Positions 5,970 through 33,189 of a stretch of DNA of 44,118 nucleotides are shown piece after piece. How positions within the stretch are numbered: the stretch's first letter is position 1; each line of letters starts with the position of its first letter. The stretch covers positions 1 to 44,118 of the forward strand of contig SLKT01000159.1 of assembly GCA_007134485.1 (NCBI GenBank). Reading direction: 5' to 3'. This stretch comes from Wenzhouxiangella sp. (GTDB taxonomy: Bacteria; Pseudomonadota; Gammaproteobacteria; Xanthomonadales; Wenzhouxiangellaceae). The notes under the pieces are model-generated. The model made no database searches. It worked only from the letters and a program-made list of their open reading frames with translations, and was not told where the DNA came from. The translations under genes were made by a program, and so were the position numbers.

Positions 5970-6050
5970 GTGTGGGGTCACCTGGTGGAGAGTTTATCGC
6001 ACGGTCCAGTGTAGGGTGCGGAATTAGAGTGGGGGAACTAATGGGACGGG

Positions 6051-8043: not shown

Positions 8044-8058
8044 GGTGAAAGGTGACCT

Positions 8059-8236
8059 GATTATCGTCGTGTCTCAGTGCTCGGGCTTTGTTCCGGTTAA
8101 AGCCGTCCTCGGGTGGCGAATTCCGCTTCAGTTCGACGCGGTGGCGAGGCCTTCAGCGAAATCCGCCACCCGAGGACGGCTTCCAGCATTGATGGTCATC
8201 GATATTGCATATGTCTGCTGAGACACGACGCGAATC
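8059..8236. repeat. Palindromic dispersed element, copy A (178 bp)
   Basis: The ends form an inverted repeat: GATTATCGTCGTGTCTCAG at 8059-8077 against its complement ending at 8236 (17 of 19 positions). An inner perfect 19-bp stem, AAGCCGTCCTCGGGTGGCG at 8100-8118, pairs with 8164-8182. Copies B (21318-21484) and C (32889-33063) match it at roughly 90% by eye. It lies between the convergent pteridine reductase and isochorismatase-family genes and is flanked by AGGTGAA heptads (8043-8056 and 8243-8258). No transposase is encoded. Confidence 0.9.
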
Positions 8237-8259
8237 AGGGGGTTGAAAGGTGAAAGGTG

Positions 8260-8817
8260 CTACCGCAACAACCGCGTTACATCGCGAAACCGGGTATGGC
8301 TGGCATCGACCATCAGTTCGAACAGGGCCATTTCCACGTTGCTGAGCTTGACGCCCGTCGACTCCATGCGTCGAAAGGCGATATCGCGGTTGAATTCGGA
8401 GCGTGAGGAGACGGCATCGCAGATCAGGTGGACCGAGTAATCCTGGTCGCGCAGGGCGGCGGCACTCTGCCAGACGCACACATGGGTCTCGATGCCGATC
8501 AACATGATCTGGCGCCGGCCGCTTTGTGTGATGGCCTGCATGATGGCCGGGTCGCCGCAGCAGCCGAAGCTGGACTTGGCCATGGGTTGCAGCCCATCGA
8601 GTTTTTCGCTTAGTTCCGGCACCGTTGGGCCGAGTTTTTCGGGCAACTGCTCAGCCCAGATGATTGGCACATCCAGCATCCGGCAGGCTTCGATCATGAT
8701 GGCCTGTTGTCCAATCATGGCCTCGGATTCGTGCATCAGGCGGGCCAGCTTGCCCTGGACGTCGACCAGGAGCAGCAGGGCATCTTCAGGTGTCAGGCGT
8801 TCGGTTGGGTCGGACAT
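8260..8817 (-). CDS. Isochorismatase-family cysteine hydrolase (YcaC-like)
   Basis: A 185-residue cytosolic hydrolase. The family triad is visible as Asp19 (LLLVDVQ), Lys81 (MAKSSFGCCG) and the nucleophile Cys114 (GIETHVCV), with the characteristic non-proline cis-peptide site just before it. Family members hydrolyse isochorismate, nicotinamide or other amide/ester substrates; the compact size and ETHVCV motif resemble the YcaC-like group, whose natural substrates are poorly known. It ends close to repeat element copy A and lies 5' to neither fol gene in a tight operon (folK precedes it by 10 nt), so co-transcription with folB-folK is likely. Confidence 0.88.
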   Translation of the reverse strand: MSDPTERLTPEDALLLLVDVQGKLARLMHESEAMIGQQAIMIEACRMLDVPIIWAEQLPEKLGPTVPELSEKLDGLQPMAKSSFGCCGDPAIMQAITQSGRRQIMLIGIETHVCVWQSAAALRDQDYSVHLICDAVSSRSEFNRDIAFRRMESTGVKLSNVEMALFELMVDASHTRFRDVTRLLR

Positions 8818-8827
8818 GGTTGAGGGG

Positions 8828-9322
8828 TCAGGATTCAGAGGTCAGTCGGTGCAGGGATCGGTCGCCCTGGAATTCCTGCCAGTGTTGGGCGAAGGTTTTT
8901 CCGCTGACCGGGTGGGTGAGGTCCGGCGCGAGCTCGGCCAGGGGTCTGAGGACATGGGCGTATTTCAGAACTTCGGGACGAGGCAGTTCAAGGCCGTCAA
9001 AGGTACCGACCTTGTCGCCATGGAGCAGGATGTCGATGTCCAGTGAACGATCGGAAAATCGGGGCTGACTGCGGTCGCGTCCGTGGCGATCTTCCAGTTC
9101 GGTCAGCCAGGCCTTGAGTTCGCCGACGTCCAGGTCGGTGCGAATCCAGGCGGCGGCATTGAGAAAGTCATCACCGTCGAAACCGACCGCCGTTGAGCGG
9201 TAGACCGAAGAAACCCGCAAGTCTCCGAAGCGATGCTGCAGGGCAACGATGCCCGCGGCGATATGTTTCTTGGCATCCTGATTGCTGCCCAGGCCCAGAT
9301 AAACGTCGATTTTTGCGTTCAT
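8828..9322 (-). CDS. folK: 2-amino-4-hydroxy-6-hydroxymethyldihydropteridine pyrophosphokinase
   Basis: A 164-residue HPPK of the folate pathway. It transfers pyrophosphate from ATP to 6-hydroxymethyl-7,8-dihydropterin. Diagnostic blocks are YLGLGSN near the N-terminus, FLNAAAWIRTDL, the metal-binding RSLDIDILLHGD segment and LPRPEVLKYAHVLRPLAELA. The ATG at 9322 begins 4 nt after the folB stop, so translation is probably coupled. Length is normal for the family. Confidence 0.95.
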   Translation of the reverse strand: MNAKIDVYLGLGSNQDAKKHIAAGIVALQHRFGDLRVSSVYRSTAVGFDGDDFLNAAAWIRTDLDVGELKAWLTELEDRHGRDRSQPRFSDRSLDIDILLHGDKVGTFDGLELPRPEVLKYAHVLRPLAELAPDLTHPVSGKTFAQHWQEFQGDRSLHRLTSES

Positions 9323-9326
9323 GGGG

Positions 9327-9686
9327 CTATTCCGGCTTGCGACCGCGTTCGATGATGATGCCAACCGAGCGCGAACCGCGCACCGCACCCGGTTTGTCGA
9401 GCTTCAGGCGCAACCACTGAACCGGGAATTCGTCCAGGACGATCTCGGCGCAGCGCTCGCCCAGGGTTTCGACCAGGCCGAACTCGCTGTTCTCGACAAA
9501 GCCGATCAGTCGCTTGGCCACCGCCTTGTAGTCAAGGGCATCCTCGATGCGATCGGTGGCGGCCGCGCGACGTACATCGGTGTTTATCTCGATGTTCAGG
9601 CGCACGGTCTGGCGAATTTCGCGCTCCCAGTCGTAGATGCCGATGACGGTGTCGATGTCGAGGTCGGAGATGAAGACGGTGTCCAT
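9327..9686 (-). CDS. folB: Dihydroneopterin aldolase
   Basis: A 119-residue enzyme converting dihydroneopterin to 6-hydroxymethyl-dihydropterin, the step before FolK. It shows the family start DTVFISDLDIDTVIGIYDWE, the DYKAVAKRL helix and the active-site ETLGERCAEIVL block. The ATG at 9686 has no recognisable Shine-Dalgarno site: the bases directly upstream on the minus strand are CCTTTAA heptad repeats and a hairpin shared with the end of tsaD. Translation initiation may therefore depend on coupling or on an unstructured leader. Confidence 0.95.
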   Translation of the reverse strand: MDTVFISDLDIDTVIGIYDWEREIRQTVRLNIEINTDVRRAAATDRIEDALDYKAVAKRLIGFVENSEFGLVETLGERCAEIVLDEFPVQWLRLKLDKPGAVRGSRSVGIIIERGRKPE

Positions 9687-9690
9687 GAAG

Positions 9691-9722
9691 AAGGTTAAAG
9701 GTTAAAGGTGAAAGGTTAAAGG
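9691..9722. repeat. AGGTTAA/AGGTGAA heptad array
   Basis: Four to five tandem copies of a 7-nt unit (AAGGTTA, with one AAGGTGA variant) sit immediately upstream of folB and next to the GACGGGA hairpin at 9730-9805. Related units occur at 8043-8056 and 8243-8258 around dispersed element A. Confidence 0.8.
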
Positions 9723-9729
9723 ATTCAGG

Positions 9730-9805
9730 GGGAAGACGGGAGACGGGAGACGGAAGACGGAGGGGGTTTTGCTTTCACGTCTCCCGTTTCCCGTCTCCCG
9801 TCTGC
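9730..9805. repeat. GACGGGA heptad hairpin overlapping the 3' end of tsaD
   Basis: The left arm from about 9731 to 9760 (GAAGACGGGAGACGGGAGAC and on) pairs with the right arm 9777-9805 (CGTCTCCCGTTTCCCGTCTC and on), around a loop containing GGTTTTGCTTT. On the minus strand the right arm encodes the last 11 residues and stop of TsaD. It probably acts as a terminator-like structure between tsaD and folB. Confidence 0.8.
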
Positions 9806-10818
9806 CCATCAACTGATGCCATCGGCAGCAGTTGATCCAGGGGCCAGCGCGGGCGGACGGCCACCTTGCCGTCAGTCGTGCCTTCGCTGCGGCGGTACCA
9901 GCCGGCGTAGGCGATCATGGCGCCGTTGTCGGTGCACAGCGACAGGCGCGGATAATACACCTGGCCGGGCAAGGCCTGGTCAAGGGCGGCGCGCAGGCGG
10001 CGGTTGGCGCTCACGCCCCCGGCGATGATCAGGCGCTCCAGCCGGGTTTGCTTGAGGGCGCGCTTGCATTTGATGACCAGGGTGTCGACCACCGCCTGTT
10101 CGAAGCCGGCGGCGATGTCGGCGTAGTCGTCGGGGCTTTGGCGTGCAACCAGTTCGCGAGTGTGGGTCTTGAGGCCGGAAAAGCTGAAGTCCAGGCCCGG
10201 CCGGTTGACCATCGGGCGTGGAAAGTCGAAGCGTTCGCGATCGCCCTGTTCGGCCAGGCGGGCGACCTCCGGTCCCCCCGGAAAGCCCAGCCCCAGCAGT
10301 CGGGCAGTCTTGTCGAAAGCCTCGCCGGCGGCATCGTCCAGGGTCTCGCCCAGCAGTTGGTAGTGGCCGGGCCTGGTGACCTCGACCAGCATGCTGTGAC
10401 CGCCCGAGACCAACAGGGCGACGAACGGGAATTCCGGCGCATTGTCCTCGAGCAGCGGCGACAGCAGGTGGCCTTCCATGTGATGCACGGCAATGGCCGG
10501 GATATCGGCTGCCGTGGCCAGGGCCACCGCGGTTGACGCGCCGACCAGCAATGCGCCGGCCAGGCCGGGTCCGGCGGTGTAGGCGACCGCATCCAGATCG
10601 CCGGCTTGCAACTCGGCCCGGTCCAGCACTTCGCGAATCATGCCGGGCAGCTTTCGCACATGGTCGCGCGAGGCCAGCTCCGGCACGACACCGCCGTAGG
10701 CGGCATGGTCGGCCTGGGTATAGACCAGCTCGGCGACGATTCCGCGCTCGGGGTTGTAGACCGCCACGCCGGTTTCATCACAGGAGGTCTCGATACCAAG
10801 AATATTTTGCACGAACAT
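9775..10818 (-). CDS. tsaD: tRNA N6-threonylcarbamoyladenosine transferase subunit TsaD
   Basis: A 347-residue catalytic subunit that installs the threonylcarbamoyl group of t6A at A37 of ANN-decoding tRNAs, working with TsaB/TsaE. The family start [14 protein letters not shown] (from residue 8), the metal-binding HMEGH (His113 and His117), SGGHSMLV and the C-terminal [10 protein letters not shown] and [12 protein letters not shown] blocks are all present. The last residues ([11 protein letters not shown]) come from the repeat hairpin and lie beyond the usual end of the family. It is divergent from rpsU with a 56-nt gap; the -35 of the rpsU promoter lies inside the first tsaD codons. Confidence 0.95.
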
Positions 10819-10836
10819 CAGCCTGCAGGTTATACT
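10807..10836 (+). promoter_or_regulatory. Sigma-70 promoter of the rpsU-yqeY-dnaG-rpoD operon
   Basis: TTGCAC (10807-10812) and TATACT (10831-10836) are separated by 18 bp, close to the consensus. Transcription would begin near 10843, giving a leader of about 30 nt before the rpsU ATG at 10875. The -35 hexamer overlaps the 5' end of divergent tsaD. Confidence 0.75.
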
Positions 10837-10874
10837 GGGCGACTTTCCACTTTAAACAGGATTCGGGAAGTTTA

Positions 10875-11090
10875 ATGCCCAGCGTCAAGGTCAAGGAAAA
10901 CGAGCCGTTCGAATACGCTCTGCGTCGTTTCAAGCGTTCGTGTGAAAAAGCCGGTGTGGTCGCCGAAAGCCGCCGCCGCGAGTTCTACGAAAAGCCCACC
11001 CAGGAGCGCAAGCGCAAGAAGGCCGCAGCGGTCAAGCGCCATCTGCGCAAGCTCTCGCGCGAACGCGTCAACCGTCGCCGATTGTACTAG
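10875..11090 (+). CDS. rpsU: 30S ribosomal protein S21
   Basis: A 71-residue, very basic small-subunit protein needed for initiation on natural mRNAs. The sequence is the canonical S21 ([20 protein letters not shown], then the [20 protein letters not shown] basic tail). Upstream GGGAAG serves as the ribosome-binding site. It is the first gene of the conserved macromolecular-synthesis operon, under the promoter at 10807-10836. A stem-loop begins at its stop codon, probably setting its higher expression relative to dnaG. Confidence 0.97.
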
Positions 11091-11120
11091 AAAGCCTTCC
11101 GGCCGCGAAGCCAGGCTTTC
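11090..11120 (+). terminator. Stem-loop between rpsU and yqeY
   Basis: GAAAGCCT (11090-11097) pairs perfectly with AGGCTTTC (11113-11120), with a GC-rich loop. There is no following T-run, so it is more likely a partial attenuator or an RNA processing/stability element than a strong terminator. This matches the known pattern in which rpsU is expressed well above dnaG in this operon. Confidence 0.55.
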
Positions 11121-11147
11121 GTGGTCGGTTGCAATCCGGTTTGCGTC

Positions 11148-11594
11148 GTGGCCCTCAAGGAACAGATACTCGATGATGTCAAGCAGGCTATGCGCGCCGG
11201 AGACAAGGCGCGCCTGAAGACCCTGCGCATGGTCACCGCCGCCGTCAAGCAGCGTGAAGTCGATGAACGCATCGAGCTTGACGACACCGCGGTACTGGCC
11301 ATCCTCGAGAAAATGATCAAGCAGCGGCGCGAATCAGCCGAGCAATATCGCAATGGTCAGCGCCCCGAGCTGGCCGAGGCCGAAGAGGCCGAGATCAACA
11401 TTCTGCAGACCTATCTGCCCGAACCCCTGAGTGAGTCCGAGCTCGATGCCATCATCGATGAGGTCATCGCCGAGCTGGGCGTGTCCGACATGAGCGGCAT
11501 GGGTCAGGTCATGGGGCAGGTCAAGGGCAAGGTCCAGGGGCGGGCCGACATGCGCGCCGTGTCCGGACGTGTCCGCGACCGTTTGTCCGCCTGA
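11148..11594 (+). CDS. GatB/YqeY domain protein
   Basis: A 148-residue helical protein of the GatB/YqeY family, which resembles the tRNA-binding tail of amidotransferase subunit GatB. Typical blocks: LKTLRMVTAAVKQREVDER, ILEKMIKQRRESAEQY, INILQTYLPEPLSESELDAI and a glycine-rich GMGQVMGQVKGKVQGRADM end. Its exact function in bacteria is not settled. The start is GTG at 11148, selected by family alignment; no strong ribosome-binding site is visible. It sits in the conserved slot between rpsU and dnaG. Confidence 0.9.
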   Translation: MALKEQILDDVKQAMRAGDKARLKTLRMVTAAVKQREVDERIELDDTAVLAILEKMIKQRRESAEQYRNGQRPELAEAEEAEINILQTYLPEPLSESELDAIIDEVIAELGVSDMSGMGQVMGQVKGKVQGRADMRAVSGRVRDRLSA

Positions 11595-11611
11595 GCCGGA
11601 ATTGAAGACCG

Positions 11612-13330
11612 TTGCCCGGTCGCATACCCGAGGATTTCATCGATTCCCTGCTCGAGCGTATCGACATTGGTGAAGTTGTTGGCGCAAGGCTGGATCTGAA
11701 ACCGGCCGGACGCGGCGAATTCAAGGCGCTGTGCCCTTTCCATAACGAAAAGTCCCCCTCGTTCACGGTCAGCACCGACAAGCAGTTCTATCACTGCTTC
11801 GGCTGTGGCGCCCATGGCACGGCGATCGGTTTTGTCATGGAGCACGATGGACTGGAGTTTCCCGCCGCCATCGAGGAGTTGGCCACAATGGCCGGGCTGG
11901 AGGTGCCGCGCGAAGCGGGCGCCGGACCGGTTCGCCGCCATGACCGCCTCTATGAAGTGCTGTCGGCCGCACAGAGCTGGTTCCGCCGCCAGCTTGGCGC
12001 CAGCGAACCCGCCCGTGAGTATCTCAAGCGGCGTGGTTTCGACAAGGCGACCGTCGATGAATTCGGCATTGGCTATGCCCCGGATTCCTGGCAGGGACTC
12101 GGCGATCACTTGCGCGGATTGGGGTTTTCCGATAGTGAAATGGAACAGGCCGGACTGATTTCTCTGAAGAACTCTCGCGCCACCGATCGGTTCCGCGGCC
12201 GGGTGATGTTTCCGATTCATGACCGGCGCGGTCGGGTGATCGCTTTCGGTGGCCGGGTCATCGGCCAGGGCGAGCCGAAGTACATGAACTCCCCTGAAAC
12301 CCCGGTCTTTCACAAGGGCCGCGAACTGTATCGCCTGTACAACGTGCGGCGCGGCGGACTGCCCGAGCGCATCCTGGTGGTCGAGGGTTACATGGACGCC
12401 GCCGCACTGCACCAATACGACATCACCGATGTCGTGGCGACCCTGGGTACGGCGGTGACAGCGGATCATCTCGATGCCCTGTTCAAGGCATCGCCGGTTG
12501 TGGTGTTCTGTTTCGATGGCGACCGTGCCGGTCGCCAGGCGGCCTGGAAAGGCCTGGAAGCGGCCCTGTCACTGATGAAGGACAACCGCGAGCTGCGGTT
12601 TCTGTTCCTGCCCGATGAAGAGGATCCGGACAGCCTGGTTCGAAGCAAGGGCGCCAAGGCCCTGCAATCGCTGATTGACCAGGCCAGTCCGTTGTCGACG
12701 TTCTTTTTCGACCAAATGGCTCGGCGTGTCGACTTGTCCACCATCGATGGCCGGGCGCGCCTGGTGGCCCTTGCAGAGCCGTATCTGAAGAAACTGCCCG
12801 CCGGCGCCTTTGCCGACCTGATGCGCAGCGAATTGCGGCGATTGGCCGGTCACACCGGCCAGGCGGCGGCTCATGCTCCGGAGCCGAAACAGGTGCGTCG
12901 ACAGCAATTCAGTGATCGCTCTCTGACCCCTGTACAATACGCGGTTGCCTTGATCGTTCAACGTCCTGAACTGACGGCTGATCCGGCTGTCTTTTTAAGG
13001 GACCTGGATGTGGAAATGAAGGGGTTGAGTTTCCTGTCGGAGTTGATTGACTTTTGCCGCGATTGCCCCCACGTTACATCGGCTAAGCTTCTGGAGCGGT
13101 GGCGTGACCGTCCGGAAGGCCCTTGGCTGGCGCACCTGATGACCCGCGAGGTGTGCAGCGATCAGGAGGAAATGCCGGGGGTTCTGGCGCAAACCATGGC
13201 CAGAATCCGTCGTTTACAGATAAAGACCCGGATTCGGGAGCTCCAGCAAGCCCAGATGAATGAAGGCGGGCTGGACGAAGCAAGGACTGATGAACTACGC
13301 ACGCTGTTGAGCCTGCGCAGCGATGAGTGA
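11612..13330 (+). CDS. dnaG: DNA primase
   Basis: A 572-residue primase that lays RNA primers for Okazaki fragments. The N-terminal CHC2 zinc site is formed by Cys41, His44, Cys62 and Cys65. The central TOPRIM catalytic core carries LVVEGYMDAAAL and FCFDGDRAGR acidic motifs. The C-terminal helical region (about residues 430-572) should bind DnaB helicase. The start is TTG at 11612, which gives the standard N-terminus (GRIPEDFIDSLL); the weak start and poor ribosome-binding site fit the deliberately low expression of primase in this operon. Confidence 0.96.
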   Translation: MPGRIPEDFIDSLLERIDIGEVVGARLDLKPAGRGEFKALCPFHNEKSPSFTVSTDKQFYHCFGCGAHGTAIGFVMEHDGLEFPAAIEELATMAGLEVPREAGAGPVRRHDRLYEVLSAAQSWFRRQLGASEPAREYLKRRGFDKATVDEFGIGYAPDSWQGLGDHLRGLGFSDSEMEQAGLISLKNSRATDRFRGRVMFPIHDRRGRVIAFGGRVIGQGEPKYMNSPETPVFHKGRELYRLYNVRRGGLPERILVVEGYMDAAALHQYDITDVVATLGTAVTADHLDALFKASPVVVFCFDGDRAGRQAAWKGLEAALSLMKDNRELRFLFLPDEEDPDSLVRSKGAKALQSLIDQASPLSTFFFDQMARRVDLSTIDGRARLVALAEPYLKKLPAGAFADLMRSELRRLAGHTGQAAAHAPEPKQVRRQQFSDRSLTPVQYAVALIVQRPELTADPAVFLRDLDVEMKGLSFLSELIDFCRDCPHVTSAKLLERWRDRPEGPWLAHLMTREVCSDQEEMPGVLAQTMARIRRLQIKTRIRELQQAQMNEGGLDEARTDELRTLLSLRSDE

Positions 13331-13352
13331 TCACAAAAAGTAGCAAGATTCT

Positions 13353-15218
<1,866 letters not shown>

Positions 15219-15222
15219 ACTC

Positions 15223-15287
15223 CGGAAGACGGAAGACGGAAGACGAAATTTTTCACGTTTCCCGTCTCCCGTCTCCCGTCTTCCCGT
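15223..15287. repeat. GACGGAA/GACGGGA hairpin between rpoD and hemE
   Basis: The left arm 15223-15245 pairs with the right arm 15256-15287 around an AATTTTTCAC-like loop. It lies 5 nt after the rpoD stop and contains the hemE stop and last codons, so it may terminate both convergent transcripts. Confidence 0.8.
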
Positions 15288-17914: not shown

Positions 17915-18126
17915 TGCAGCTTGCGCGGTGGGGGATTGGGCCGGTGGCGAGGAGCGCCAGTCACAAGTCCTGGACGGTTCGGAGCATGGTCCACGTGGGG
18001 TTCGTGCAGTCTATGGCAATCCAGCAGCCATGCTACCATGCTCGCCTCCCGCGCAAAGTTATTCAGAGCCTCCCTGGCGCGTTTTGCTACCATAACGCCT
18101 TTGTTTCCACAGGCCGGTCCGGACTG

Positions 18127-19490: not shown

Positions 19491-20077
19491 GCACACCAAT
19501 GACTTCTGAAATGCTGTCTCGCTTTCGTCAGGGTTTCGAGCGCGCCCAGGCCGCCGGGGTGCCCGAACCCACGGCCATGACCGTGGCCACGGTCGACGCG
19601 CACAATCGTCCGACCGCGCGAACCCTTCTGCTCAAGGATGCCGACCAGGGTGGCTTTGTCTTCTACACCAACCTGCAGTCTCGCAAGGGCCAGCACCTGG
19701 CGAAGAATACTGCTGTGTCGCTGGTGTTCTGGTGGCGTGAAATCGAAGAGCAGGTTGTGGTCGAAGGCACTGTCGAGCCGGTCAGCGTGGTCGAGGCCGA
19801 TGCCTATTTCGCCAGTCGACCCCGTGGCAGCCAGATCGGCGCCTGGGCCTCGCTGCAATCGAAGCCACTGGCCGATCGCCAGGAGCTCGTCGACCGGATT
19901 GCTGAGATTGAGAAACGCTACGAAGGCCGCGAAGTGCCCCGTCCGGAACACTGGTCCGGCTTCCGCACCCGCCCCCATCGGGTCGAATTCTGGTACGGCA
20001 AGAAGTATCGGCTGCACGAGCGGGTGTGTTATGAGCTGGTAGACGGCGATTGGGAAGAGGGGTTGTTGTATCCGTGA
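19487..20077 (+). CDS. pdxH: Pyridoxamine 5'-phosphate oxidase
   Basis: A 196-residue FMN enzyme oxidising pyridoxamine- or pyridoxine-phosphate to pyridoxal phosphate. Conserved elements: RTLLLKDAD, FVFYTNLQSRKGQHLAKN (FMN-phosphate contacts), ASRPRGSQIGAWAS and the C-terminal WSGFRTRPHRVEFW block with the substrate-binding Arg/His. Length is slightly short of the E. coli enzyme but complete. It overlaps the upstream SDR by 4 bp. Confidence 0.96.
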   Translation: MSTPMTSEMLSRFRQGFERAQAAGVPEPTAMTVATVDAHNRPTARTLLLKDADQGGFVFYTNLQSRKGQHLAKNTAVSLVFWWREIEEQVVVEGTVEPVSVVEADAYFASRPRGSQIGAWASLQSKPLADRQELVDRIAEIEKRYEGREVPRPEHWSGFRTRPHRVEFWYGKKYRLHERVCYELVDGDWEEGLLYP

Positions 20078-20087
20078 TGAGAAAGGG

Positions 20088-20161
20088 GGAAGACGGGAGA
20101 CGGAAGACGGGAGACGGAGGTCAGAGGTCAGGCTTTTCCGTAAACCGTAAACCGTTAACCG
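20088..20161. repeat. Composite heptad array between pdxH and trmH
   Basis: Three different 7-nt-period arrays are joined: GACGGGA/GACGGAA (20088-20118), AGGTCAG (20118-20132) and CGTAAAC/CGTTAAC (20138-20161). The last one contains the trmH stop codon. Unlike 6051 and 9730, the two ends are not complementary. Confidence 0.75.
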
Positions 20162-20757: not shown

Positions 20758-20775
20758 GGCGGTATGGTAGCGGTA

Positions 20776-21297: not shown

Positions 21298-21317
21298 TCC
21301 CCAGCAATAACCTTCAT

Positions 21318-21484
21318 GATTACTCAGTGCGCGGGCTTCGTTCCGGCCAACGCCGTCCTCGGGCGGTGAATTCCGCTTCAGTTCGACGCGGTGGCGAGGC
21401 CTTCAGCGAAATCCACCACCCGAGGACGGCTTGCAGTATTGACGTCCATCGATACTGCCAACGCCTGCTGAGACGCGACGCTAC
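21318..21484. repeat. Palindromic dispersed element, copy B (about 167 bp)
   Basis: Nearly identical to copy C (about six differences by eye over 160 bases). The left terminus has lost about nine bases of the GATTAGCGTCGTGTCTCAG end; the right terminus is CTGAGACGCGACG. The inner stem near 21351-21369 pairs with 21412-21432. It lies between the convergent exported-protein and DUF4426 genes. Confidence 0.88.
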
Positions 21485-21490
21485 TTTGCA

Positions 21491-21510
21491 TCTTCGCGTC
21501 TTCGCGTTCA
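21491..21510. repeat. Short TTCGCGTC repeat
   Basis: CTTCGCGTCTTCGCG directly follows dispersed copy B, at the 3' end of the DUF4426 gene. It resembles the CTCCGCGTCTCTGCGG-type arms of the palindrome at 36040-36125. Confidence 0.5.
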
Positions 21511-21522
21511 GCAGGTTTTTTA

Positions 21523-21972: not shown

Positions 21973-21996
21973 CGGTTTTCTCCGTGTCCGCTGCAT

Positions 21997-24067: not shown

Positions 24068-24152
24068 GCGCTAATATCGGAGTCTGGGCTTGAAATGAAG
24101 AAAATACCGGATCACGGTCGGCTCTTTCGGGGCACATTGGACAAGGACGAAT

Positions 24153-25190: not shown

Positions 25191-25227
25191 TCGGTCGGGG
25201 TCCGAAGTCAGCGCGCAGGAGGTAGAC

Positions 25228-26367
25228 ATGAGCGATAACGTCAAGGACGAAATCAAGAGCTGGCTGCGCCAGTTGCATGACAAGAATGGCTCCGACCTTT
25301 TTGTCACGGTCGGTGCACCGCCATGCGTGAAGGTGCATGGCCGGATCAAGCCTTTGACCCGTGAGGCATTGAATCACGAGATGGTGGTCCGGATCATCGA
25401 CGCCATCATGACCGAAAATCAGCGCAAGGAGTTCCGGGACACCAAGGAATGTCAGTTTGCGGTGTCGCTGGAGGGGGTGGCCCGGTTTCGGGTCAGTGCC
25501 TTCTATCAGCGCAACAGCGTCGGCATGGTCTGTCGCCGGATCGAGACCAAGATCCCGAGTTTCTCCGACCTGGACCTGCCCGAGTCGCTGTCCGAACTGG
25601 CCATGGCCAAGCGAGGTATTGTTACGCTGGTGGGCGCGACCGGCACCGGAAAATCCACGACCCTGGCCGCCATGGTCGGGCATCGCAACTGCAATGCTTC
25701 GGGCCACATCATCAGCATCGAAGACCCGATCGAGTTTGTCCACAAACACCGCAAGAGCCTGGTGACCCAGCGTGAAGTGGGTATCGACACCGAATCATTC
25801 GACATTGCGCTCAAGAACACCCTGCGCCAGGCGCCTGACGTGATCATGATCGGTGAGATTCGAACCCGCGAGTCCATGGAGCAGGCTATCACCTTTGCCG
25901 AAACCGGCCATCTTTGCCTGACCACACTGCACGCCAACAATGCCAACCAGGCCATGGATCGCATGCTGCATTTCTTCCCCGAGGATCGACATCCCCAGGT
26001 GCTGCTTGATTTGTCCTTCAACCTGAAGGCCGTGATCGCCCAGCAATTGGTGCCATCGATCGACGGAGACCGTCGCCATGTGGCCTTGGAAATGCTGATC
26101 AACACGCCCCTGGTCCAGGAGAAGATCCGCAAGGGCAAGGTCGATGAGCTCAAGGGCATCATGAAGGATTCCACGCATCACGGCATGGTCACGTTCGACC
26201 AGAGTCTGCTTAATTTGTACCAGAATGGTCAAATCTCCTACGAGGATGCATTGCGCCATGCCGATTCGGCCAACGATGTTCGGTTGGCCGTCAAACTCAG
26301 TGAAGGCGCCAGCTCGGAGTCGCTCAGTGGCAAGCTCGGTGACCTGGACCTGATCGACAATCGTTGA
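25228..26367 (+). CDS. pilU: PilT-like accessory retraction ATPase PilU
   Basis: A 379-residue PilT paralogue. Walker A is VGATGTGKST with Lys142; it retains the IEDPIEFVHKH Asp box and VIMIGEIRTRE. A longer C-terminal extension beyond the PilT length and the LEMLINTPLVQEKIRKG block are typical of PilU, which assists PilT. A perfect AGGAGG lies 5 nt before the ATG at 25228, much stronger than that of pilT. The pair is co-transcribed. Confidence 0.96.
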   Translation: MSDNVKDEIKSWLRQLHDKNGSDLFVTVGAPPCVKVHGRIKPLTREALNHEMVVRIIDAIMTENQRKEFRDTKECQFAVSLEGVARFRVSAFYQRNSVGMVCRRIETKIPSFSDLDLPESLSELAMAKRGIVTLVGATGTGKSTTLAAMVGHRNCNASGHIISIEDPIEFVHKHRKSLVTQREVGIDTESFDIALKNTLRQAPDVIMIGEIRTRESMEQAITFAETGHLCLTTLHANNANQAMDRMLHFFPEDRHPQVLLDLSFNLKAVIAQQLVPSIDGDRRHVALEMLINTPLVQEKIRKGKVDELKGIMKDSTHHGMVTFDQSLLNLYQNGQISYEDALRHADSANDVRLAVKLSEGASSESLSGKLGDLDLIDNR

Positions 26368-26405
26368 CAATCGGTAACTTTCGGTCAAGAAGTTCCGTGT
26401 GGCCC

Positions 26406-26436
26406 TTAACCGCCCGTTAACCGTGAAAGGCTTAAC
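26406..26436 (+). promoter_or_regulatory. Possible OmpR/PhoP-type operator: three TTAAC boxes
   Basis: TTAAC occurs at 26406-26410, 26417-26421 and 26432-26436, the first two 11 bp apart (one helical turn). Direct repeats with this spacing upstream of an OmpR-family regulator gene suggest an autoregulatory binding site. This is inferred from spacing and position only. Confidence 0.45.
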
Positions 26437-26501
26437 ATCTGAACCTGTTGGTGCCGCCAGAACGCAGCGAGTTCGCACCGACGGTTACGGGGCGATGTGG
26501 G

Positions 26502-26537
26502 CCCGGGCGAGGTAACCTCGCCTGGGTCATTTTTTTC
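26502..26537 (+). terminator. Rho-independent terminator upstream of the response regulator
   Basis: An 11-bp stem (CCCGGGCGAGG against CCTCGCCTGGG, one G-U pair) with a TAA loop is followed by TCATTTTTTT. It is 135 nt after pilU and ends 30 nt before the response regulator ATG. It either ends the pilTU transcript or attenuates a transcript from a promoter upstream of it. Confidence 0.8.
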
Positions 26538-26566
26538 TGTAATGGTGAAAAAGCAGTCAACCTCTG

Positions 26567-27259
26567 ATGCGCATTCTGATCATTGAAGACAACCGGGACA
26601 TCGCGGCCAACCTCGGTGATTTTCTCTCCGACCGGGGCCACGAGATTGACTATGCCTATGACGGCGTCACCGGTTTGCACCTGGCCATCGTCAACGAGTT
26701 CGACGCCATCGTGCTCGACCTGGCCCTGCCGGGGATGGACGGATTGGAGGTCTGTCGCAAATTGCGCGAAGAGGCGCGCAAGGAAACGCCGGTACTGATG
26801 CTGACCGCGCGTGATCAACTCGAGGAAAAGCTGGCCGGATTCGAATCCGGCGCCGATGATTACCTGGTCAAGCCTTTCGAACTCAAGGAAGTCGATGCGC
26901 GTCTGGCTGTCCTGGCGCGTCGTGGTCAGCGTATCAAGCCGCGTGAACTCAAAGTGGCCGATCTCGAGTACAACCTGGAAACCCTGACCGTCAAGCGGGC
27001 CGGCAAGAAGATCGACCTCAACCCGATCGGGCTGAAGCTGCTAGAGAAATTGATGAGCGCCTCACCGGCGGTGGTCACGCGCAGCGAGCTCGAACACCAC
27101 GTCTGGGGTGAGGAACTGCCCGACAGTGACAGCCTGCGGGTGCACATCCATACCCTTCGAAGCGCCATTGACAAGCCGTTTGATGTCCCATTGATCAATA
27201 CCCGACATGGGATCGGGTATTGCCTGGTGCCACCGGATGAAGTTTCGGCGTCGACTTAG
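26567..27259 (+). CDS. OmpR/PhoP-family response regulator
   Basis: A 230-residue DNA-binding regulator. The receiver domain (about 1-118) has the acidic pair Glu7/Asp8, phospho-acceptor Asp51 (AIVLDLALPGMDG) and Lys102 (DDYLVKPF). The C-terminal winged helix (about 125-225) shows LNPIGLKLLEKLM and RVHIHTLRSAIDKPF, with INTRHGIGYCL at the end. It overlaps its cognate kinase gene by 23 bp. The style resembles PhoP/QseB-like regulators of envelope functions; the target regulon is not deducible. Three TTAAC boxes and a terminator lie upstream. Confidence 0.93.
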   Translation: MRILIIEDNRDIAANLGDFLSDRGHEIDYAYDGVTGLHLAIVNEFDAIVLDLALPGMDGLEVCRKLREEARKETPVLMLTARDQLEEKLAGFESGADDYLVKPFELKEVDARLAVLARRGQRIKPRELKVADLEYNLETLTVKRAGKKIDLNPIGLKLLEKLMSASPAVVTRSELEHHVWGEELPDSDSLRVHIHTLRSAIDKPFDVPLINTRHGIGYCLVPPDEVSAST

Positions 27260-28523
27260 AAGCCGGCTGATCCTGTCGTTTCTGCTGTTCGGGACGCTAC
27301 TCAGCGTCCTTTTTGCAGTGGCCGCCATGCTCTTGCAGAGCTGGCTGGAGGATGCGCTGATCGCACGGACCCTGGCCGATGAGGTGGATCAGTACATTTC
27401 CGATCTGCGTGAGGATCCAACCCTGGTCGAGCCGTTCTATACCCGAATACAGGGCTATGTGACCCGTCCGGAACGGGCCGAAATCGTGCCGACGCCGTTC
27501 CGTGATCTGCCATCGGGTGTGCATGATGTCAGTACTGGCGAAGGTTACTTCAAGGCGGCCGTGGCCAAGGAAGAGGATTTCTGGGTCTTTCTGACCTATG
27601 ATGTCTCGGAAAATCGCGAATTGTCCCGACGATTGCTGGTGGGGCTGGTCGCAACGGTGATCTTTTTCTCGCTGCTGTCCCTGGCGCTGGGCATCTGGTC
27701 GGCCGGGCGCGTCATGGCGCCGGTCACCCTGCTGGCAAGGCGGCTCGAAGCACTCGATGAGACCGCGCACGGTTCACTGAAGAAACACTTCCCCGATGAC
27801 GAGGTCGGTCAATTGGCTGCAGCCCTCGACGACTACGCCGCGCGTCTTCACGATCTGGTCGAGCGTGACAAGGCCTTCAATGCCGATGTATCCCATGAGT
27901 TGCGAACACCGCTGGCGGTGATTTCCGGAGCCACGGAGTTGATGCTCACCCAACCGGATCTTTCGGAACGAAATCGCGATCGGCTGCTGCGCATCGCACG
28001 GGCCGCGCGCCAGTCCACCGACATCACCACGGCGTTGTTGCACCTTGTGCGTTCCGACAATGCCGACAATGTCGACATGCCGGCGCAACAGGTGGGGGAG
28101 ATTGCCGAGCAGGTTGTCGATAACTATCGCCCGCTGATCGGCGAACGTGACCTGGAGCTGGTCTATGAACAAGTAGACAGTGTCAGTGTCATTGCATCCG
28201 AGGCGGTCATTGCCGTCACCCTGGGCAACCTGGTCGGCAATGCAATTCGCTATACCAATGAGGGGGAAGTCCGTGTGCGAGTCGAGCGTGGACGAGTCAG
28301 GATCCTGGATACAGGGCCGGGCATTCCCGAGGAAGAACTGCCGCAGGTGTTCGATCGACATTTCAGGGGACGCCAGGCCGGTGGTGGCAAGGGCTCGGGG
28401 CTGGGGCTATCGATCGTCAAGCGCCTGTGCGACCTGTATGGCTGGCGAATCGAGTTTTCCAACCGCGAGCAGGGTGGTCTGGAGGTCACGCTACATTTCT
28501 TCCCTGATCGGGACCGCTCCTGA
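27237..28523 (+). CDS. Membrane sensor histidine kinase
   Basis: A 428-residue inner-membrane kinase. Two transmembrane helices (about 11-33 and 133-155) bracket a periplasmic sensor of about 100 residues. A HAMP-like linker (about 156-208) leads to the H box NADVSHELRTPLAVISG with phospho-accepting His220. ATP-binding motifs follow: N box NLVGNAIRYTNEG, G1 LDTGPGIPEEE and G2 GKGSGLGLSIVKRLC. It partners the overlapping response regulator; the signal is unknown. The ATG at 27237 lies within the regulator gene. Confidence 0.92.
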   Translation: MKFRRRLRSRLILSFLLFGTLLSVLFAVAAMLLQSWLEDALIARTLADEVDQYISDLREDPTLVEPFYTRIQGYVTRPERAEIVPTPFRDLPSGVHDVSTGEGYFKAAVAKEEDFWVFLTYDVSENRELSRRLLVGLVATVIFFSLLSLALGIWSAGRVMAPVTLLARRLEALDETAHGSLKKHFPDDEVGQLAAALDDYAARLHDLVERDKAFNADVSHELRTPLAVISGATELMLTQPDLSERNRDRLLRIARAARQSTDITTALLHLVRSDNADNVDMPAQQVGEIAEQVVDNYRPLIGERDLELVYEQVDSVSVIASEAVIAVTLGNLVGNAIRYTNEGEVRVRVERGRVRILDTGPGIPEEELPQVFDRHFRGRQAGGGKGSGLGLSIVKRLCDLYGWRIEFSNREQGGLEVTLHFFPDRDRS

Positions 28524-28554
28524 AATTCACCGGTAACTGAGATACCCTGTAATC

Positions 28555-28917
28555 ATGGCCATTGTCAATTGCCCCAACTGCGACAAGAAAGTTTCTTCCC
28601 AGCATTCGGTTTGCCCTCACTGCAAAGTCGCCCTGACGGAACTCAGTGAAGAAGATCGCAAGCATTTGCAGCTGGAGCGCTGGAAGGATCAAGTCTATCG
28701 GGCCACCAACTTTTCCTATCTCGCGTTGACGGCCCTGATCGTCGGTGCGCTGTGGTGGTGGATGGCCGGTGCAGGTGGCTGGGTCATGCCGCCGCCGATC
28801 CCGGCTTTCGTGCTGATTGCAATGGGTGCGGTCGGCTACCTGGTCGGGCGCGGTTGGTTGCTGTGGCTGCGGATCGGTCGTGGCCGACCGGATCGCCGCA
28901 AGGGCTCGCGTTTCTGA
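28555..28917 (+). CDS. Zinc-ribbon membrane protein
   Basis: A 120-residue protein with an N-terminal zinc ribbon (Cys6, Cys9, Cys20, Cys23: CPNC and CPHC) and two C-terminal transmembrane segments (about 55-72 and 80-103), ending in a basic tail (GRGRPDRRKGSRF). It lies 31 nt after the kinase gene and may be part of the same operon. No specific function is recognised. Confidence 0.82.
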   Translation: MAIVNCPNCDKKVSSQHSVCPHCKVALTELSEEDRKHLQLERWKDQVYRATNFSYLALTALIVGALWWWMAGAGGWVMPPPIPAFVLIAMGAVGYLVGRGWLLWLRIGRGRPDRRKGSRF

Positions 28918-28941
28918 CCCACTCCCGACCGGAGCCTGGCC

Positions 28942-29460
28942 TCATTCCACGCGTCTGACCCGGGCGCGCGTATTGTAGCCTTCGACTTGCAGGTGCCAAC
29001 CGCCGAACATCCCGCGTTTGATCTCCACGGCGGGATTTTCCATCTGGCGGGTAGAGAAGCTGCGGCCATCGGTTTGTTGCCAGACCATGCCGTTTTCCAA
29101 CTCGAATATGTCGTTGCCTCTCCAGCCGTTGAAGGACCCGACCAGGCGAGACCGAATGGTTCGCTCATCGTCATCATCCCCGCCGTTGAATCCGCGGTCA
29201 TCGTCAGCCGGGGCGTCGCGACGGTCATCATCGCGATCCTGGGCGTCCGGCAACTCTCCTTCAGCCAGTGAGCGCTGCCGGATCCAGCGGTTCAACTCCG
29301 CCAGTTCCTCATCGGTGAGTTTGTGCAGGCCGGCATCACGAAATTCGCGACCGGTCATGCGTTCCTCGAGCGAGGAAAAGCCCGTCTGGGCGACGGCCCC
29401 GGCGCTGATCAGCAGGGATAGTCCGACGACGGCCAGTCTCATCAGGTTCTTCGGATTCAT
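28942..29460 (-). CDS. Exported acidic hypothetical protein
   Basis: A 172-residue protein with a signal peptide (about residues 1-24, LAVVGLSLLISAGAVAQ core). A conserved-looking helix (FSSLEERMTGREFRDAGLHK, then LTDEELAELNRWI) is followed by an Asp/Arg-rich linker (about 72-98) and a C-terminal beta-rich domain with the FNGWRGNDIFELENGMVWQQ segment. Such proteins occur in Xanthomonadales-like genomes without known function. It is convergent with the zinc-ribbon gene across 24 bp. Confidence 0.7.
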   Translation of the reverse strand: MNPKNLMRLAVVGLSLLISAGAVAQTGFSSLEERMTGREFRDAGLHKLTDEELAELNRWIRQRSLAEGELPDAQDRDDDRRDAPADDDRGFNGGDDDDERTIRSRLVGSFNGWRGNDIFELENGMVWQQTDGRSFSTRQMENPAVEIKRGMFGGWHLQVEGYNTRARVRRVE

Positions 29461-29501
29461 TGAAATCTTTCGGTCAGGTCGTGAGAGCAGAGTCTAACCG
29501 T

Positions 29502-30530
29502 TCAAAGATCATGTTTGTAGCGGACGTAGGGAATCCGTCCAAAGACCTGCTCGGCCGGCTCGTCCATGGCGGCGGCCTCACTTTCATCCAGGCGTGGCGC
29601 GTTGTCGAGCAGGTTGCTGATACCGATGCTCAGGGCGGCATTTCGTGGACGCCACGAGAACTCCAGGTCGAATGACTGGAAGGGCGCCGATGCGGGATTT
29701 CCGGCCAGCCACAGCGGAGCATCCCGATGGTGGCCCATGATGTCGCCACTGAGGCTGCCACGCCGCCAGCCAAACGAGAGCTGGGCGGAATTGGCGTAGA
29801 AGTAATCGGATTCCGGGCTTGGCATCGCCGCTTGCGGTGAAAGGCCCAGGTCGGCCATGCTCATGCGCTGGCGGTAGCGGGCCACTTGCAGCCCGACCAG
29901 AAAATCTCCGACCCGCTCGGTACTCAGCCCGAAGCTGACATTGAGGTCGACACCATCGACCGGGCTGCTTCCGCCGGGCTCGATGCCGTCATGAAGCGAG
30001 ATCGGCTGCCATGTGTTCTGCCGTTGACCGGTTCGGGCAGTGTCGCCTGCCGGGCCGCTGTCGGGGTTGTGATTGCGAAACGCGCCCATTCCGAGACGCA
30101 GGCCGGGCGTCGCCATCCATTCGCCACGCACCTGGACCAGGTTGACCGAATTTTCGGGTACTGGCTGGTCCACGAATCGACAGTCTTCGGCCAGAAAGGA
30201 GTCCAGCGTCATGGTGTGATTGCGGCATTGAATGTGCGCCAGGCTGGCGGTGTTGAGCTGCCATGCCTCCAGCGACCAGGAAAAGGCGCTACGGTCGTTG
30301 GAATCGGCGGCCGACGCCTGATCGCCCAGGCCCAATGGAACGCTCATGGTCATGCGCGGGCGAACGCCGGGCAATCCCATGGCGTCGCGCTGGCTGATCG
30401 ACAACGTCGGTTGGAGCCTGTCGTCGAGAATGGATTCGTCTCCGGGTGGGTCCCCGGACAGCTGGCCATGGGCAAGACTCATGGACAGAACGGTTGCCAC
30501 CGCGAATCCTGTGAAGCGATAAACCAGCAT
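29502..30530 (-). CDS. Probable outer-membrane beta-barrel protein
   Basis: A 342-residue protein with a signal peptide (about 1-22). The body has many alternating hydrophobic/polar strands rich in Trp, Tyr and Arg, such as AQLSFGWRRGSLSGDIMGHH and FDLEFSWRPRNAALSIGISN; the latter with LLDNAP resembles the terminal strands of TonB-dependent receptors, but no plug domain is present. It ends VRYKHDL rather than with a classic terminal Phe. A small porin-like or receptor-derived barrel is the best guess. Confidence 0.6.
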   Translation of the reverse strand: MLVYRFTGFAVATVLSMSLAHGQLSGDPPGDESILDDRLQPTLSISQRDAMGLPGVRPRMTMSVPLGLGDQASAADSNDRSAFSWSLEAWQLNTASLAHIQCRNHTMTLDSFLAEDCRFVDQPVPENSVNLVQVRGEWMATPGLRLGMGAFRNHNPDSGPAGDTARTGQRQNTWQPISLHDGIEPGGSSPVDGVDLNVSFGLSTERVGDFLVGLQVARYRQRMSMADLGLSPQAAMPSPESDYFYANSAQLSFGWRRGSLSGDIMGHHRDAPLWLAGNPASAPFQSFDLEFSWRPRNAALSIGISNLLDNAPRLDESEAAAMDEPAEQVFGRIPYVRYKHDL

Positions 30531-30838
30531 GGTCCCGGTATTCCAATCCTTTGTCGACTAGTGCCACTCAGGCACTTTGAGTCCCTTTTTGACCAAAAGT
30601 TTACATTCCCACTGGGAGGGAGTCTATCAGAGCGTTTTTCAATATGCACTAGGAATCGATCACAAATCACGGAATTCAAAGCGTTTTGAACCTGGATTGC
30701 GGGGCGGGCCGAAAATCGGCTGATGCCATCAAGCAGAGTGTTCTGCTGCAAGGCAGAAGCGGGTCGCCCGGCAGCGCTTGCCTCGAGCCCGCACAGGCGG
30801 CACAATGCCGGGCTTACCTTGTATCCCGCGAAATTCTC
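30531..30838. other. Intergenic region upstream of tkt
   Basis: This 308-bp spacer separates the divergent outer-membrane protein gene and tkt. It holds two small hairpins: AGTGCC/GGCACT near 30560-30577 and AGCAGA/TCTGCT near 30732-30747. AT-rich tracts (TTTTTGACCAAAAGTTTACA region near 30590) look promoter-like, but no hexamer pair with correct spacing could be fixed. The frame upstream of the tkt ATG is open but has no family resemblance. Confidence 0.5.
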
Positions 30839-32836
30839 ATGACTGATCGCCGCCAGCTTGCCAACGCCATCCGTGCCCTTTCAATGGACGCCGTCCAGCG
30901 CGCCAACTCCGGCCATCCGGGCATGCCGATGGGCATGGCCGATATCGCCGAAGTGCTGTTCAATGATCACCTCATGCACAACCCGGCCAACCCCGACTGG
31001 TGGGATCGCGACCGTTTCGTGGTTTCCAACGGCCATGGCTCCATGCTGCTGTACTCGGTGCTGCACCTGACCGGATACGGGGTTTCGATGGATGACCTGA
31101 AGAATTTTCGTCAGCTTCATTCCCCGACCCCGGGACACCCCGAGTACGGCGAGGCGCCGGGCGTGGAAACCACTACCGGACCGCTCGGCCAGGGCCTGGC
31201 CAATGCCGTCGGCATGGCGCTGGCCGAGAAACTGCTTGCGGCGCGTTTCAACGCCGACGATTACAACCTGGTTGATCACTGGACCTGGGTGTTCGCCGGT
31301 GACGGCTGCCTGATGGAAGGCATTTCCCATGAGGTCTGCTCGCTGGCCGGCACCTGGGGCCTGGGCAAGCTGGTGGTGTTCTACGATGACAACAACATCT
31401 CAATCGACGGCGAGGTCGACGGCTGGTTTACCGATAACACCCCGGAGCGTTTCCGTGCTTACGGCTGGCAAGTGATCGAGGCCGTTGACGGTCACAACCC
31501 GGCCGCGGTCGACGAGGCCATCAAGGCGGCCCGCGCCAACACCGACCAGCCCACCCTGATCTGCTGCAAGACCACCATTGGCTACGGTGCGCCGAACAAG
31601 GCCGGCACGGCCGACACCCACGGCGCGCCGCTGGGCGACGAGGAAATCGAGGCCACCCGCAAGCAACTGGACTGGCCACATCCGCCGTTCGAGGTGCCGG
31701 ACGAGATCCGCGCCGGCTGGGATGCGCGCGAACGCGGCGCCGAGCGGGAAAAACGCTGGGCGGCAACCTGGAAGGCCTATCGCGAAGACCATCCCAAGCT
31801 CGCCGCCGAGTTCGAGCGCCGTATGAGTGGCCGCCTGCCCGACAACTTTGATCGCGTCGTCGCTGACGTACTCGGTCGCATGCAGGCCGATGACAAGAGC
31901 GTGGCCACCCGCAAGGCCTCGGCCTTGAGCCTGGAGGCGTTCGGGCCGCATCTGCCGGAAATGCTTGGCGGGTCGGCCGATCTGACCGGGTCGAATAACA
32001 CCAACTGGTCGGGCAGCGTCGACATCCTGGACGATGCCGCCAACGGAAATTACATTTATTACGGCGTGCGCGAGTTCGGCATGACCGCGATCGCCAACGG
32101 CCTTTATCTGCACGGCGGCTTCATCCCATACACCGGCACGTTCCTGGTGTTTTCCGATTACGCCCGCAATGCCGTTCGTATGTCGGCGCTGATCCCCACC
32201 GGGATGATTCATGTCTACACCCACGACTCCATCGGCCTGGGCGAGGATGGCCCCACCCACCAGCCGGTCGAACACCTGACCAGCCTGAGACTAATTCCCA
32301 ACATGGATGTCTGGCGTCCGGCCGACAAGGTCGAGACCGCCGCCGCCTGGGCCGCCGCGCTGGCTCGGCGCAATGGCCCCAGCGCCCTGGTGCTCAGCCG
32401 CCAGGGTTTGCCCCACCAGTCGCGCAACAACGAACAACTGGCCATGATCGCGCGCGGTGGTTATGTGCTGAGTGACCCCGAAAGCGGTGATGCGCAGGCC
32501 GCCATTCTGGCCAGCGGCTCCGAGGTCGGCCTGGCCATGGCCGCCGCCGAGGTGCTGGCCGCCGAGGGCATTCGGGTGCGGGTCGTTTCCATGCCCAATC
32601 CCGACCTGTTCATGGCCCAGGACGAGGACTACCGCCAATCCGTCCTGCCCGAGGCCCTGGATGCCCGGGTGGCTGTCGAAGCCGGCGTCAGCCTGTATTG
32701 GCGTCACATCGTCGGCCCACGTGGCCGGGTTATTGGCATCGACCGCTTCGGCGGCTCGGCACCGGCCGGGGACCTGTTTGCCGAGTACGGTTTTTCAGCC
32801 GATGCAGTGGTGGCTGCGGTCAGGGACGTGATCTGA
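30839..32836 (+). CDS. tkt: Transketolase
   Basis: A 665-residue thiamine-diphosphate enzyme transferring two-carbon ketol units in the pentose phosphate and Calvin-type pathways. Markers: [35 protein letters not shown], the ThDP/Mg motif [30 protein letters not shown] and the C-terminal [12 protein letters not shown] block. The ATG at 30839 gives the standard start ([18 protein letters not shown]). The neighbouring gap and pgk place it in a central carbon cluster, interrupted here by a repeat element and an RCC1-like gene. Confidence 0.97.
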
Positions 32837-33189
32837 AAGAGGGCGAAGGGGTCAAGAGGTCAAGGGGGCAAGAGGTTAAGAGGTTCCTGATTAGCGTGTC
32901 TCAGTGCGCGGGCTTCGTTCCGGTCAAAGCCGTCCTCGGGCGGTGAATTCCGCTTCAGTTCGACGCGGTGGCGAGGCCTTCAGCGAAATCCACCACCCGA
33001 GGACGGCTTGCGGCATTGACGTCCATCGATACTGCCAACGCCTGCTGAGACACGACGCTAATCCGGGAGAGGTTCTGGTTCGGGCTGGGGTCGGGTTTTT
33101 GATTTTGCGTGGCGGCTTTTGGCTGGAATCTCGTATAGATACGGGAAAGCTCTATCCATCAATGCGAAAAAACAACGAGGGATTGATCC
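32837..33189. other. Intergenic region between tkt and the RCC1 gene
   Basis: This 353-bp spacer contains an 8-nt-period purine array (GTCAAGAG/GTTAAGAG type, 32851-32885), then dispersed palindromic element C (32889-33063), then about 125 bp with the GAGG ribosome-binding site of the RCC1 gene. No gene is supported: the frame crossing it only reflects the repeat. Confidence 0.7.
32889..33063. repeat. Palindromic dispersed element, copy C (175 bp)
   Basis: The termini are GATTAGCGTGTCTCAG on the left and the complement of GATTAGCGTCGTGTCTCAG on the right, identical but for a 3-nt gap. This defines the element ends best. The inner stem near 32928-32946 pairs with 32990-33009. It lies between tkt and the RCC1-like gene in the same orientation as copies A and B. 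Confidence 0.9.

What the first reader, a model, noticed from the sequence alone, without database searches (positions are those of the whole stretch)
8059..33063. Three-copy palindromic element of about 175 bp with 19-bp terminal inverted repeats
Copies at 8059-8236, 21318-21484 and 32889-33063 share the whole length. Copies B and C differ at about six positions; A is roughly 90% similar by eye. Each has terminal inverted repeats (GATTAGCGTCGTGTCTCAG type) and an inner 19-bp stem (AAGCCGTCCTCGGGTGGCG in A) that stays nearly perfectly paired, and all three are in the same orientation. The compensated stem changes (GGGTGGCG/CGCCACCC in A; GGGCGGTG/CACCACCC in B and C) hint at selection on structure. 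No transposase is inside, so it looks like a MITE, or a structured RNA/bidirectional terminator (A and B sit between convergent genes).
Basis: seen in the sequence. Interest (0 to 1): 0.85.

Follow-up and report, generated by a model that had tools for sequence, protein, structure and literature searches.

The report
Mobile DNA carrying an invariant-loop hairpin
The three repeats are copies of a small transposon-like element whose ends are shared with related bacteria, while its centre is a hairpin whose loop hardly changes although its stem changes in matched pairs, which hints that one kind of mobile end carries many unrelated palindromes and that this one has gained an unknown job.

Summary
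The repeat is real: 20 matching places in this Wenzhouxiangellaceae genome. The element is about 184 bp with 22-bp inverted ends (CCTGATTAGCGTCGTGTCTCAG). The 35 Wenzhouxiangella elements with both ends show an 8-bp target duplication (z 8.4, 0 of 3000), and the copy-A site is empty in a close relative. It is a MITE; no partner transposase was found. Two things go beyond an ordinary MITE. (1) The central hairpin's loop is nearly invariant: 0.027 differences per site against 0.16-0.21 in the ends (12 own copies with both ends). Its stem varies in compensated pairs (21 of 24 pairs, 18 hairpins), also at orthologous sites. None of 60 placed hairpins lies inside a gene. (2) The same ends, some with exact 8- or 9-bp duplications, enclose unrelated palindromic repeats in other genera. 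Best reading: a MITE chassis with exchangeable REP-like cargo, the Wenzhouxiangella hairpin being kept for an unknown loop-recognised function. Mobilisation by a RAYT and a simple terminator are not supported.

The parts
8056..8239 (+). copy A of the MITE, 184 bp, both 22-bp ends (8056-8077, 8218-8239)
   Evidence: listed as L009; flanking 8 bp match at 1 of 8; site empty in G014
8100..8182 (+). central hairpin of A: 5' arm 8100-8125, core with loop 8126-8157, 3' arm 8158-8182
21318..21484 (+). copy B, ends decayed
   Evidence: aligned part 21323-21483
21350..21432 (+). central hairpin of B, core 21376-21407
32886..33066 (+). copy C of the MITE, 181 bp; left end 32886-32904 (3 bp missing), right end 33045-33066
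32927..33009 (+). central hairpin of C, core 32953-32984
32878..32885 (+). left copy of probable 8-bp target duplication of C (AAGAGGTT)
   Evidence: by eye, 7 of 8; the flank itself contains AGAGGTT-like repeats, so this single case is weak
33067..33074 (+). right copy of probable target duplication of C (GAGAGGTT)
   Evidence: by eye, 7 of 8

Best explanation
The repeat is a MITE: a non-autonomous transposon of about 184 bp with 22-bp inverted ends, inserted with an 8-bp target duplication by an unidentified transposase acting in trans (shown: ends, duplication, dispersed copies, an empty site; inferred: a DDE-type enzyme). Its centre is a module of its own, a REP-like hairpin of about 21-26 pairs with a loop of about 27 nt. 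After insertion, mostly just downstream of genes, the ends decay but the hairpin is kept: its loop stays nearly unchanged while the stem changes in matched pairs (shown). The most likely reason is that a host factor, protein or RNA, recognises the loop when it is displayed on a stem, either in the 3' end of a transcript or in a DNA cruciform (inferred). The same ends carry unrelated palindromes in other genera (shown), so they act as a chassis for exchangeable palindromic cargo (inferred).
For: 20 places in the genome. 8-bp duplication: 47 elements, z 9.2, 0 of 2000; Wenzhouxiangella alone 35 elements, z 8.4, 0 of 3000; 5 of the 47 match 8 of 8. Copy-A site empty in G014. Covariation on 18 divergent hairpins: 91.2% of cells paired, 21 of 24 pairs changed on both sides, score 0.717 against 0.199 shuffled and at most 0.165 slid. 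Differences per site among 12 own copies with both ends: loop 0.027, stem arms 0.081 and 0.070, outer arms 0.20 and 0.24, ends 0.16 and 0.21. Six orthologous groups: loop 0-3 of 27 sites variable, 2-7 of 21 pairs changed on both sides. 60 placed hairpins: none inside genes, 30 convergent against 37 of 220 background spaces, Fisher p 6e-7. Same ends around other palindromes, with 9 of 9 duplications in L359, L360, L361, L373, L374 and 8 of 8 in L369.
Against: No autonomous partner or transposase was found. Many copies have no recognisable duplication (of 47 elements, 28 match at 5 or fewer of 8, but 12 of the 47 belong to G055, which favours 9 bp), copy A among them. The 7- and 11-bp offsets are also somewhat raised (z 2.6 and 3.2). 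Most hairpins were collected through the core, which inflates loop constancy; one search is the fairest figure. No factor that reads the loop is known, and tandem settings show little strand preference (15 of 25 in the sense of the genes, counted), which does not favour a strand-specific RNA. In other genera several end-bounded elements lack a duplication (L363, L367, L370, L372).
Confidence: 0.82

Rival explanations
1. It is a REP/REPIN family spread by a REP-associated tyrosine transposase (RAYT), as proposed for GTAG REPs.
For: Hairpins lie 3' of genes, and pairs and arrays in alternating orientation occur. RAYT genes exist in 9 of 30 genus genomes, one broken and one a fragment, 124 bits to the NCBIfam model for the G023 protein. 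In G023 the left half of an element lies just upstream of the RAYT gene. 8 of 9 RAYT-bearing and 13 of 21 other genus genomes carry the core (G020's single weak match not counted).
Against: That association is not significant (Fisher p 0.21). The own genome has no RAYT or Y1 match. Five of eight RAYT loci (L311-L315) have ordinary GTAG-type palindromes beside them by eye, and none of the eight has a core-like hairpin within 500 bp. No core within the 30 fetched Y1 loci. The element makes a target duplication, which this enzyme class is not known to do (recalled).
Confidence: 0.06
2. The hairpin is mainly a transcript-end structure: a bidirectional terminator or mRNA 3'-end protector between genes, carried there by the MITE.
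For: Half of the placed hairpins are between convergent genes and only 5 of 60 between divergent ones; very stable fold; no strand preference is expected from a palindrome.
Against: No terminator-like site in the A and B regions; a terminator or protector does not explain why a 27-nt loop hardly changes while the stem is free to change. Avoidance of promoters and genes alone would give the same placement.
Confidence: 0.25
3. No function: stems stay paired because template switching during replication corrects quasi-palindromes, and loops look constant because the copies are young or were collected by loop.
For: Quasi-palindrome correction is an established process (recalled). Stems can be almost wholly exchanged yet paired: L043 against L294, 15 of 21 pairs changed on both sides and no other pair different. 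Most sites were found through the core.
Against: The copies are not young by their ends: loop 0.027 against ends 0.16-0.21. At orthologous sites the loop is kept while nearby DNA is 0.20-0.49 identical without gaps, with one value of 0.80.
Confidence: 0.15

Closest known systems
Prokaryotic MITEs, for example Correia and ERIC (review PMC10969869, passages read)
   Same: short, no gene inside, inverted ends, dispersed between genes, transcript could fold stably
   Different: partner transposase unknown; the centre is a long-looped hairpin with a near-invariant loop; the same ends hold unrelated palindromes in other genera
GTAG and CGTC REPs, BIMEs and REPINs (PMC3733652, abstract and passages read; other REP papers seen in listings only)
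   Same: extragenic palindromes, mostly 3' of genes and between convergent genes, pairs in opposite orientation
   Different: no GTAG tag seen beside the hairpin; the paper gives mostly very short loops and, for CGTC families, 8-9-bp stems with 4-5-base loops, whereas here the loop is about 27 nt and constant and the stem is variable; moved with a target duplication
TIR-flanked tyrosine transposase genes ('TIRtrons', PMC3733652, passages read)
   Same: inverted repeats associated with palindromic repeat families
   Different: those ends flank a transposase gene; the 30 fetched Y1 loci showed no close match to these ends except the half element in L135

Membership tests
MITE | terminal inverted repeats | tested here: met
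   22-bp ends; frayed in copy B and in the left end of C
MITE | target site duplication | tested here: met
   8 bp in Wenzhouxiangella as a group, z 8.4; not visible at copy A
MITE | many dispersed copies, insertion sites empty in relatives | tested here: met
   20 places; empty A site in G014; core absent in all 19 relative loci fetched for each of A, B and C, some cut by contig ends
MITE | partner transposase with matching ends | tested here: inconclusive
GTAG/CGTC REP | short palindrome with conserved GTAG or CGTC tag beside the stem | tested here: not met
   no such tag among the conserved flanking positions of 31 representatives; a GGCTTCGA-like stretch stands there in part of them, by eye
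GTAG/CGTC REP | extragenic, 3' of genes, opposite-orientation pairs | tested here: met
GTAG/CGTC REP | association with a RAYT gene (GTAG families) | tested here: not met
   one half element beside a RAYT in G023
Rfam RNA families | score above the gathering threshold | tested here: not met
   0 matches in the window; at copy C only matches far below gathering score, mostly miRNA models
Correia, ERIC and other named MITEs | sequence identity of the ends | not tested
   no IS or MITE sequence library was on hand

The most novel reading that the evidence does not exclude
One transposition system moves unrelated palindromic repeats: its 22-bp ends are a chassis into which the abundant extragenic palindrome of each lineage has been loaded, which would explain how REP families without their own transposase disperse; and the Wenzhouxiangella cargo is a stem-displayed, nearly invariant loop read by an undescribed host factor.
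Probability: 0.35. Interest if true: 0.85.

Novelty: new variant of a known kind. Interest (0 to 1): 0.64.

Why it matters
Many extragenic palindromes have no known mover and no known reader. Here the mover's signature (ends plus duplication) can be told apart from the cargo, and the cargo shows which part is constrained: the loop.

Tried and rejected
RAYT/HUH mobilisation: not supported. Autonomous transposon between end pairs of G055: none in the intervals read; L209 holds an IS110-type insertion, L279 holds ORFs that look like host genes by eye. Element against plasmids and phages: no match; a G041 element against plasmids: no match; ends in viral contigs: no exact match. Rfam: no match. 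Terminator and promoter scans: nothing in the A and B regions.

Literature, all within the held open-access library: no paper holds the core 14-mer; five pieces of the ends gave one paper, on an aptamer, seen in the listing only; searches on Wenzhouxiangella repeats, conserved-loop REPs, REPIN/RAYT and MITEs were judged from their listings and named no such element. The AB-CW3 genome paper (PMC7691419) has no hit for transpos, palindrom, mobile or insertion sequence in its main text (term search). 'Not in print' is limited to these searches.

An apparent stem replacement between L073 and L085 (flanks 89% and 88%, loop identical) is ambiguous, since they may be separate insertions. My first structure string was off by one column; one search is the corrected one. 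In one search the loci of minus-strand hits were not turned, so the blocks for L241, L242, L221, L222 and L261-L263 mean nothing; only L240 was used for the empty site, while B and C have no base-level empty site. (19 copies, loop 0.017, ends 0.20-0.26) includes copies with missing ends and was replaced (12 copies).

Full report
What was checked. The three copies exist as described, in the same orientation. Over 161 nt A is 88% and C 97% identical to B. Better boundaries are 8056-8239 for A and 32886-33066 for C; B is frayed at its ends. The window lies in a 3.35-Mb, 206-contig assembly in which the element matches 20 places; two of them (on C185 and C95) stop at contig ends inside the palindrome and may be one copy cut in two. 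A degenerate core pattern gives 69 stretches in named genomes, 59 titled Wenzhouxiangella or Wenzhouxiangellaceae and 10 titled Gammaproteobacteria bacterium. With up to 3 mismatches the core is in 20 of 299 sampled genomes of the order, all of one genus. BLAST finds matches in 24 of 101 relatives, including two genomes of a second genus of the family, whose loops are one base shorter.

It is a MITE. Copies share 22-bp ends CCTGATTAGCGTCGTGTCTCAG. In 47 distinct elements bounded by both ends, the eight bases on the left equal the eight on the right at 53% of positions, against 30% when flanks are dealt anew (z 9.2, 0 of 2000); neighbouring lengths are lower (9 bp z 6.9, 11 bp z 3.2, 7 bp z 2.6). 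By group, 35 Wenzhouxiangella elements give 8 bp (z 8.4, 0 of 3000), and 12 of genome G055, of another family, favour 9 bp (z 2.9, 20 of 3000). Five of 47 match at 8 of 8; copy A matches at 1 of 8; copy C, not in that table because of its shortened end, at 7 of 8 by eye. In the close relative G014 the A site is empty and made of AAGGTGA-type heptads. The core is absent from all 19 relative loci fetched for each of A, B and C, some of them cut by contig ends. No transposase was found between the end pairs read.

The centre is a module of its own. In relatives the core CTTCAGTTCGACGCGGTGGCGAGGCCTTCAGC stands on stems of different sequence that remain complementary: 119 distinct sites fall into 33 stem clusters. 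On 18 representatives 91.2% of cells pair, 21 of 24 pairs have changes on both sides, and the covariation score is 0.717 against 0.199 in shuffles and at most 0.165 with slid partners. Opposite-orientation pairs and, in G018, an array of six occur. Hairpins occur where the ends are not found at up to 3 mismatches: G003, G011, G019 and G027.

The loop is kept after insertion. Collecting by core inflates loop constancy, so the fairest figure comes from own copies found with the whole element and having both ends (12): differences per site 0.027 in the loop, 0.081 and 0.070 in the stem arms, 0.20 and 0.24 in the outer arms, 0.16 and 0.21 in the ends. With 19 copies, some lacking ends, the loop is 0.017 (L020 left out because its core is flipped). 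Similar flanks on both sides link 42 hairpin pairs, several of them within one array. In six orthologous groups of two to five hairpins the loop has 0-3 variable sites of 27, while 2-7 of 21 pairs changed on both sides; 45-nt neighbouring stretches are 0.20-0.49 identical without gaps, one 0.80. The extreme pair, L043 against L294, has 15 of 21 pairs changed on both sides with pairing kept and no other pair different, the loop differing by one base in length.

Placement. A simple codon-usage gene caller placed 60 hairpins, with 16 more at locus edges: none inside a gene, 30 convergent, 25 tandem, 5 divergent; background spaces of at least 60 bp are 37, 130 and 53 of 220. Convergent excess: Fisher p 6e-7, or 1.6e-6 after moving copy C, which the caller misplaced because it missed the RCC1-repeat gene, to tandem. 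In tandem settings 15 of 25 hairpins are in the sense of the genes (counted).

The ends are a chassis. With up to two mismatches the ends occur in 18 of 299 genomes of the order, in 7 of 85 genera, and in 2 of 369 of the class sample, the own genome being one. In other genera they enclose other palindromes: CCCCTCTCCC types in G055 and G064, CCCTCCC types in G112, G292, G199 and G247, a CATTCCGGCG type in G262, a GTAGGGTGGATAAGCG type in G041, and in G247 also a 547-bp AAAGAAAAGTAACCC type. In G335, of another order, an imperfect pair of ends encloses a TGTAGGAGC-type palindrome; the stricter script did not accept its right end, and one 2-mismatch hit in 369 genomes could by itself be chance. 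Duplications are exact in L359, L360, L361, L373 and L374 (9 of 9) and L369 (8 of 8), near-exact in others, and not seen in L363, L367, L370 and L372. The G262 cargo palindrome, at up to 3 mismatches, occurs 19 times in G262 and 48-257 times in four other genomes of that family, and in none of the three remaining genomes searched; the ends number 5 in G262 and 12-25 in the other four. So that palindrome is an independent repeat family.

What moves it and what reads it. RAYTs exist in 9 of 30 genus genomes. Five of eight inspected RAYT loci have GTAG-type palindromes beside them by eye, and none a core-like hairpin within 500 bp; in G023 half an element lies upstream of the RAYT. RAYT and core presence are not significantly linked (8 of 9 against 13 of 21, p 0.21). 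The duplication points to a DDE-type enzyme (inference).

Comparison. As a mobile unit it passes the MITE tests except a known partner. As a hairpin it works like a REP but fails the tag and RAYT tests, and its constancy is reversed: long constant loop, variable stem. The searches named under Tried and rejected showed no description of it.

Noticed in passing
window 6036-6081, 9704-9763, 15204-15249, 20075-20134: Short tandem heptad repeats (GGAAGAC type, elsewhere AAGGTGA and AAGGTTC types) in the window; several MITE copies sit in such heptads.
   Followed up: partly
window 2473-4283 (-): Two neighbouring lipid A acyltransferase-family genes that are diverged duplicates.
   Followed up: no
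window 33190-34857 (+): RCC1-repeat protein gene right of copy C.
   Followed up: no
L020 1490-1669: One own-genome copy has its central core inverted relative to its outer arms, so the palindrome's centre can flip.
   Followed up: partly
L209 1257-2189 (-): An IS110-type transposase gene inserted between the two ends of an element in G055.
   Followed up: partly
L286 662-1390: Six hairpins in both orientations within about 0.7 kb in G018, a BIME-like array.
   Followed up: no
L135 1302-1968: Left half of an element lies directly upstream of a RAYT gene in G023.
   Followed up: partly
L066 near 2905: Of an inverted hairpin pair kept in related species, the second hairpin lacks its loop and one arm here, a clean deletion.
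   Followed up: no
flanks of L003 and L012: Another palindromic repeat (AGAGTTATTCAGAGGCTCC type) stands next to some copies.
   Followed up: no
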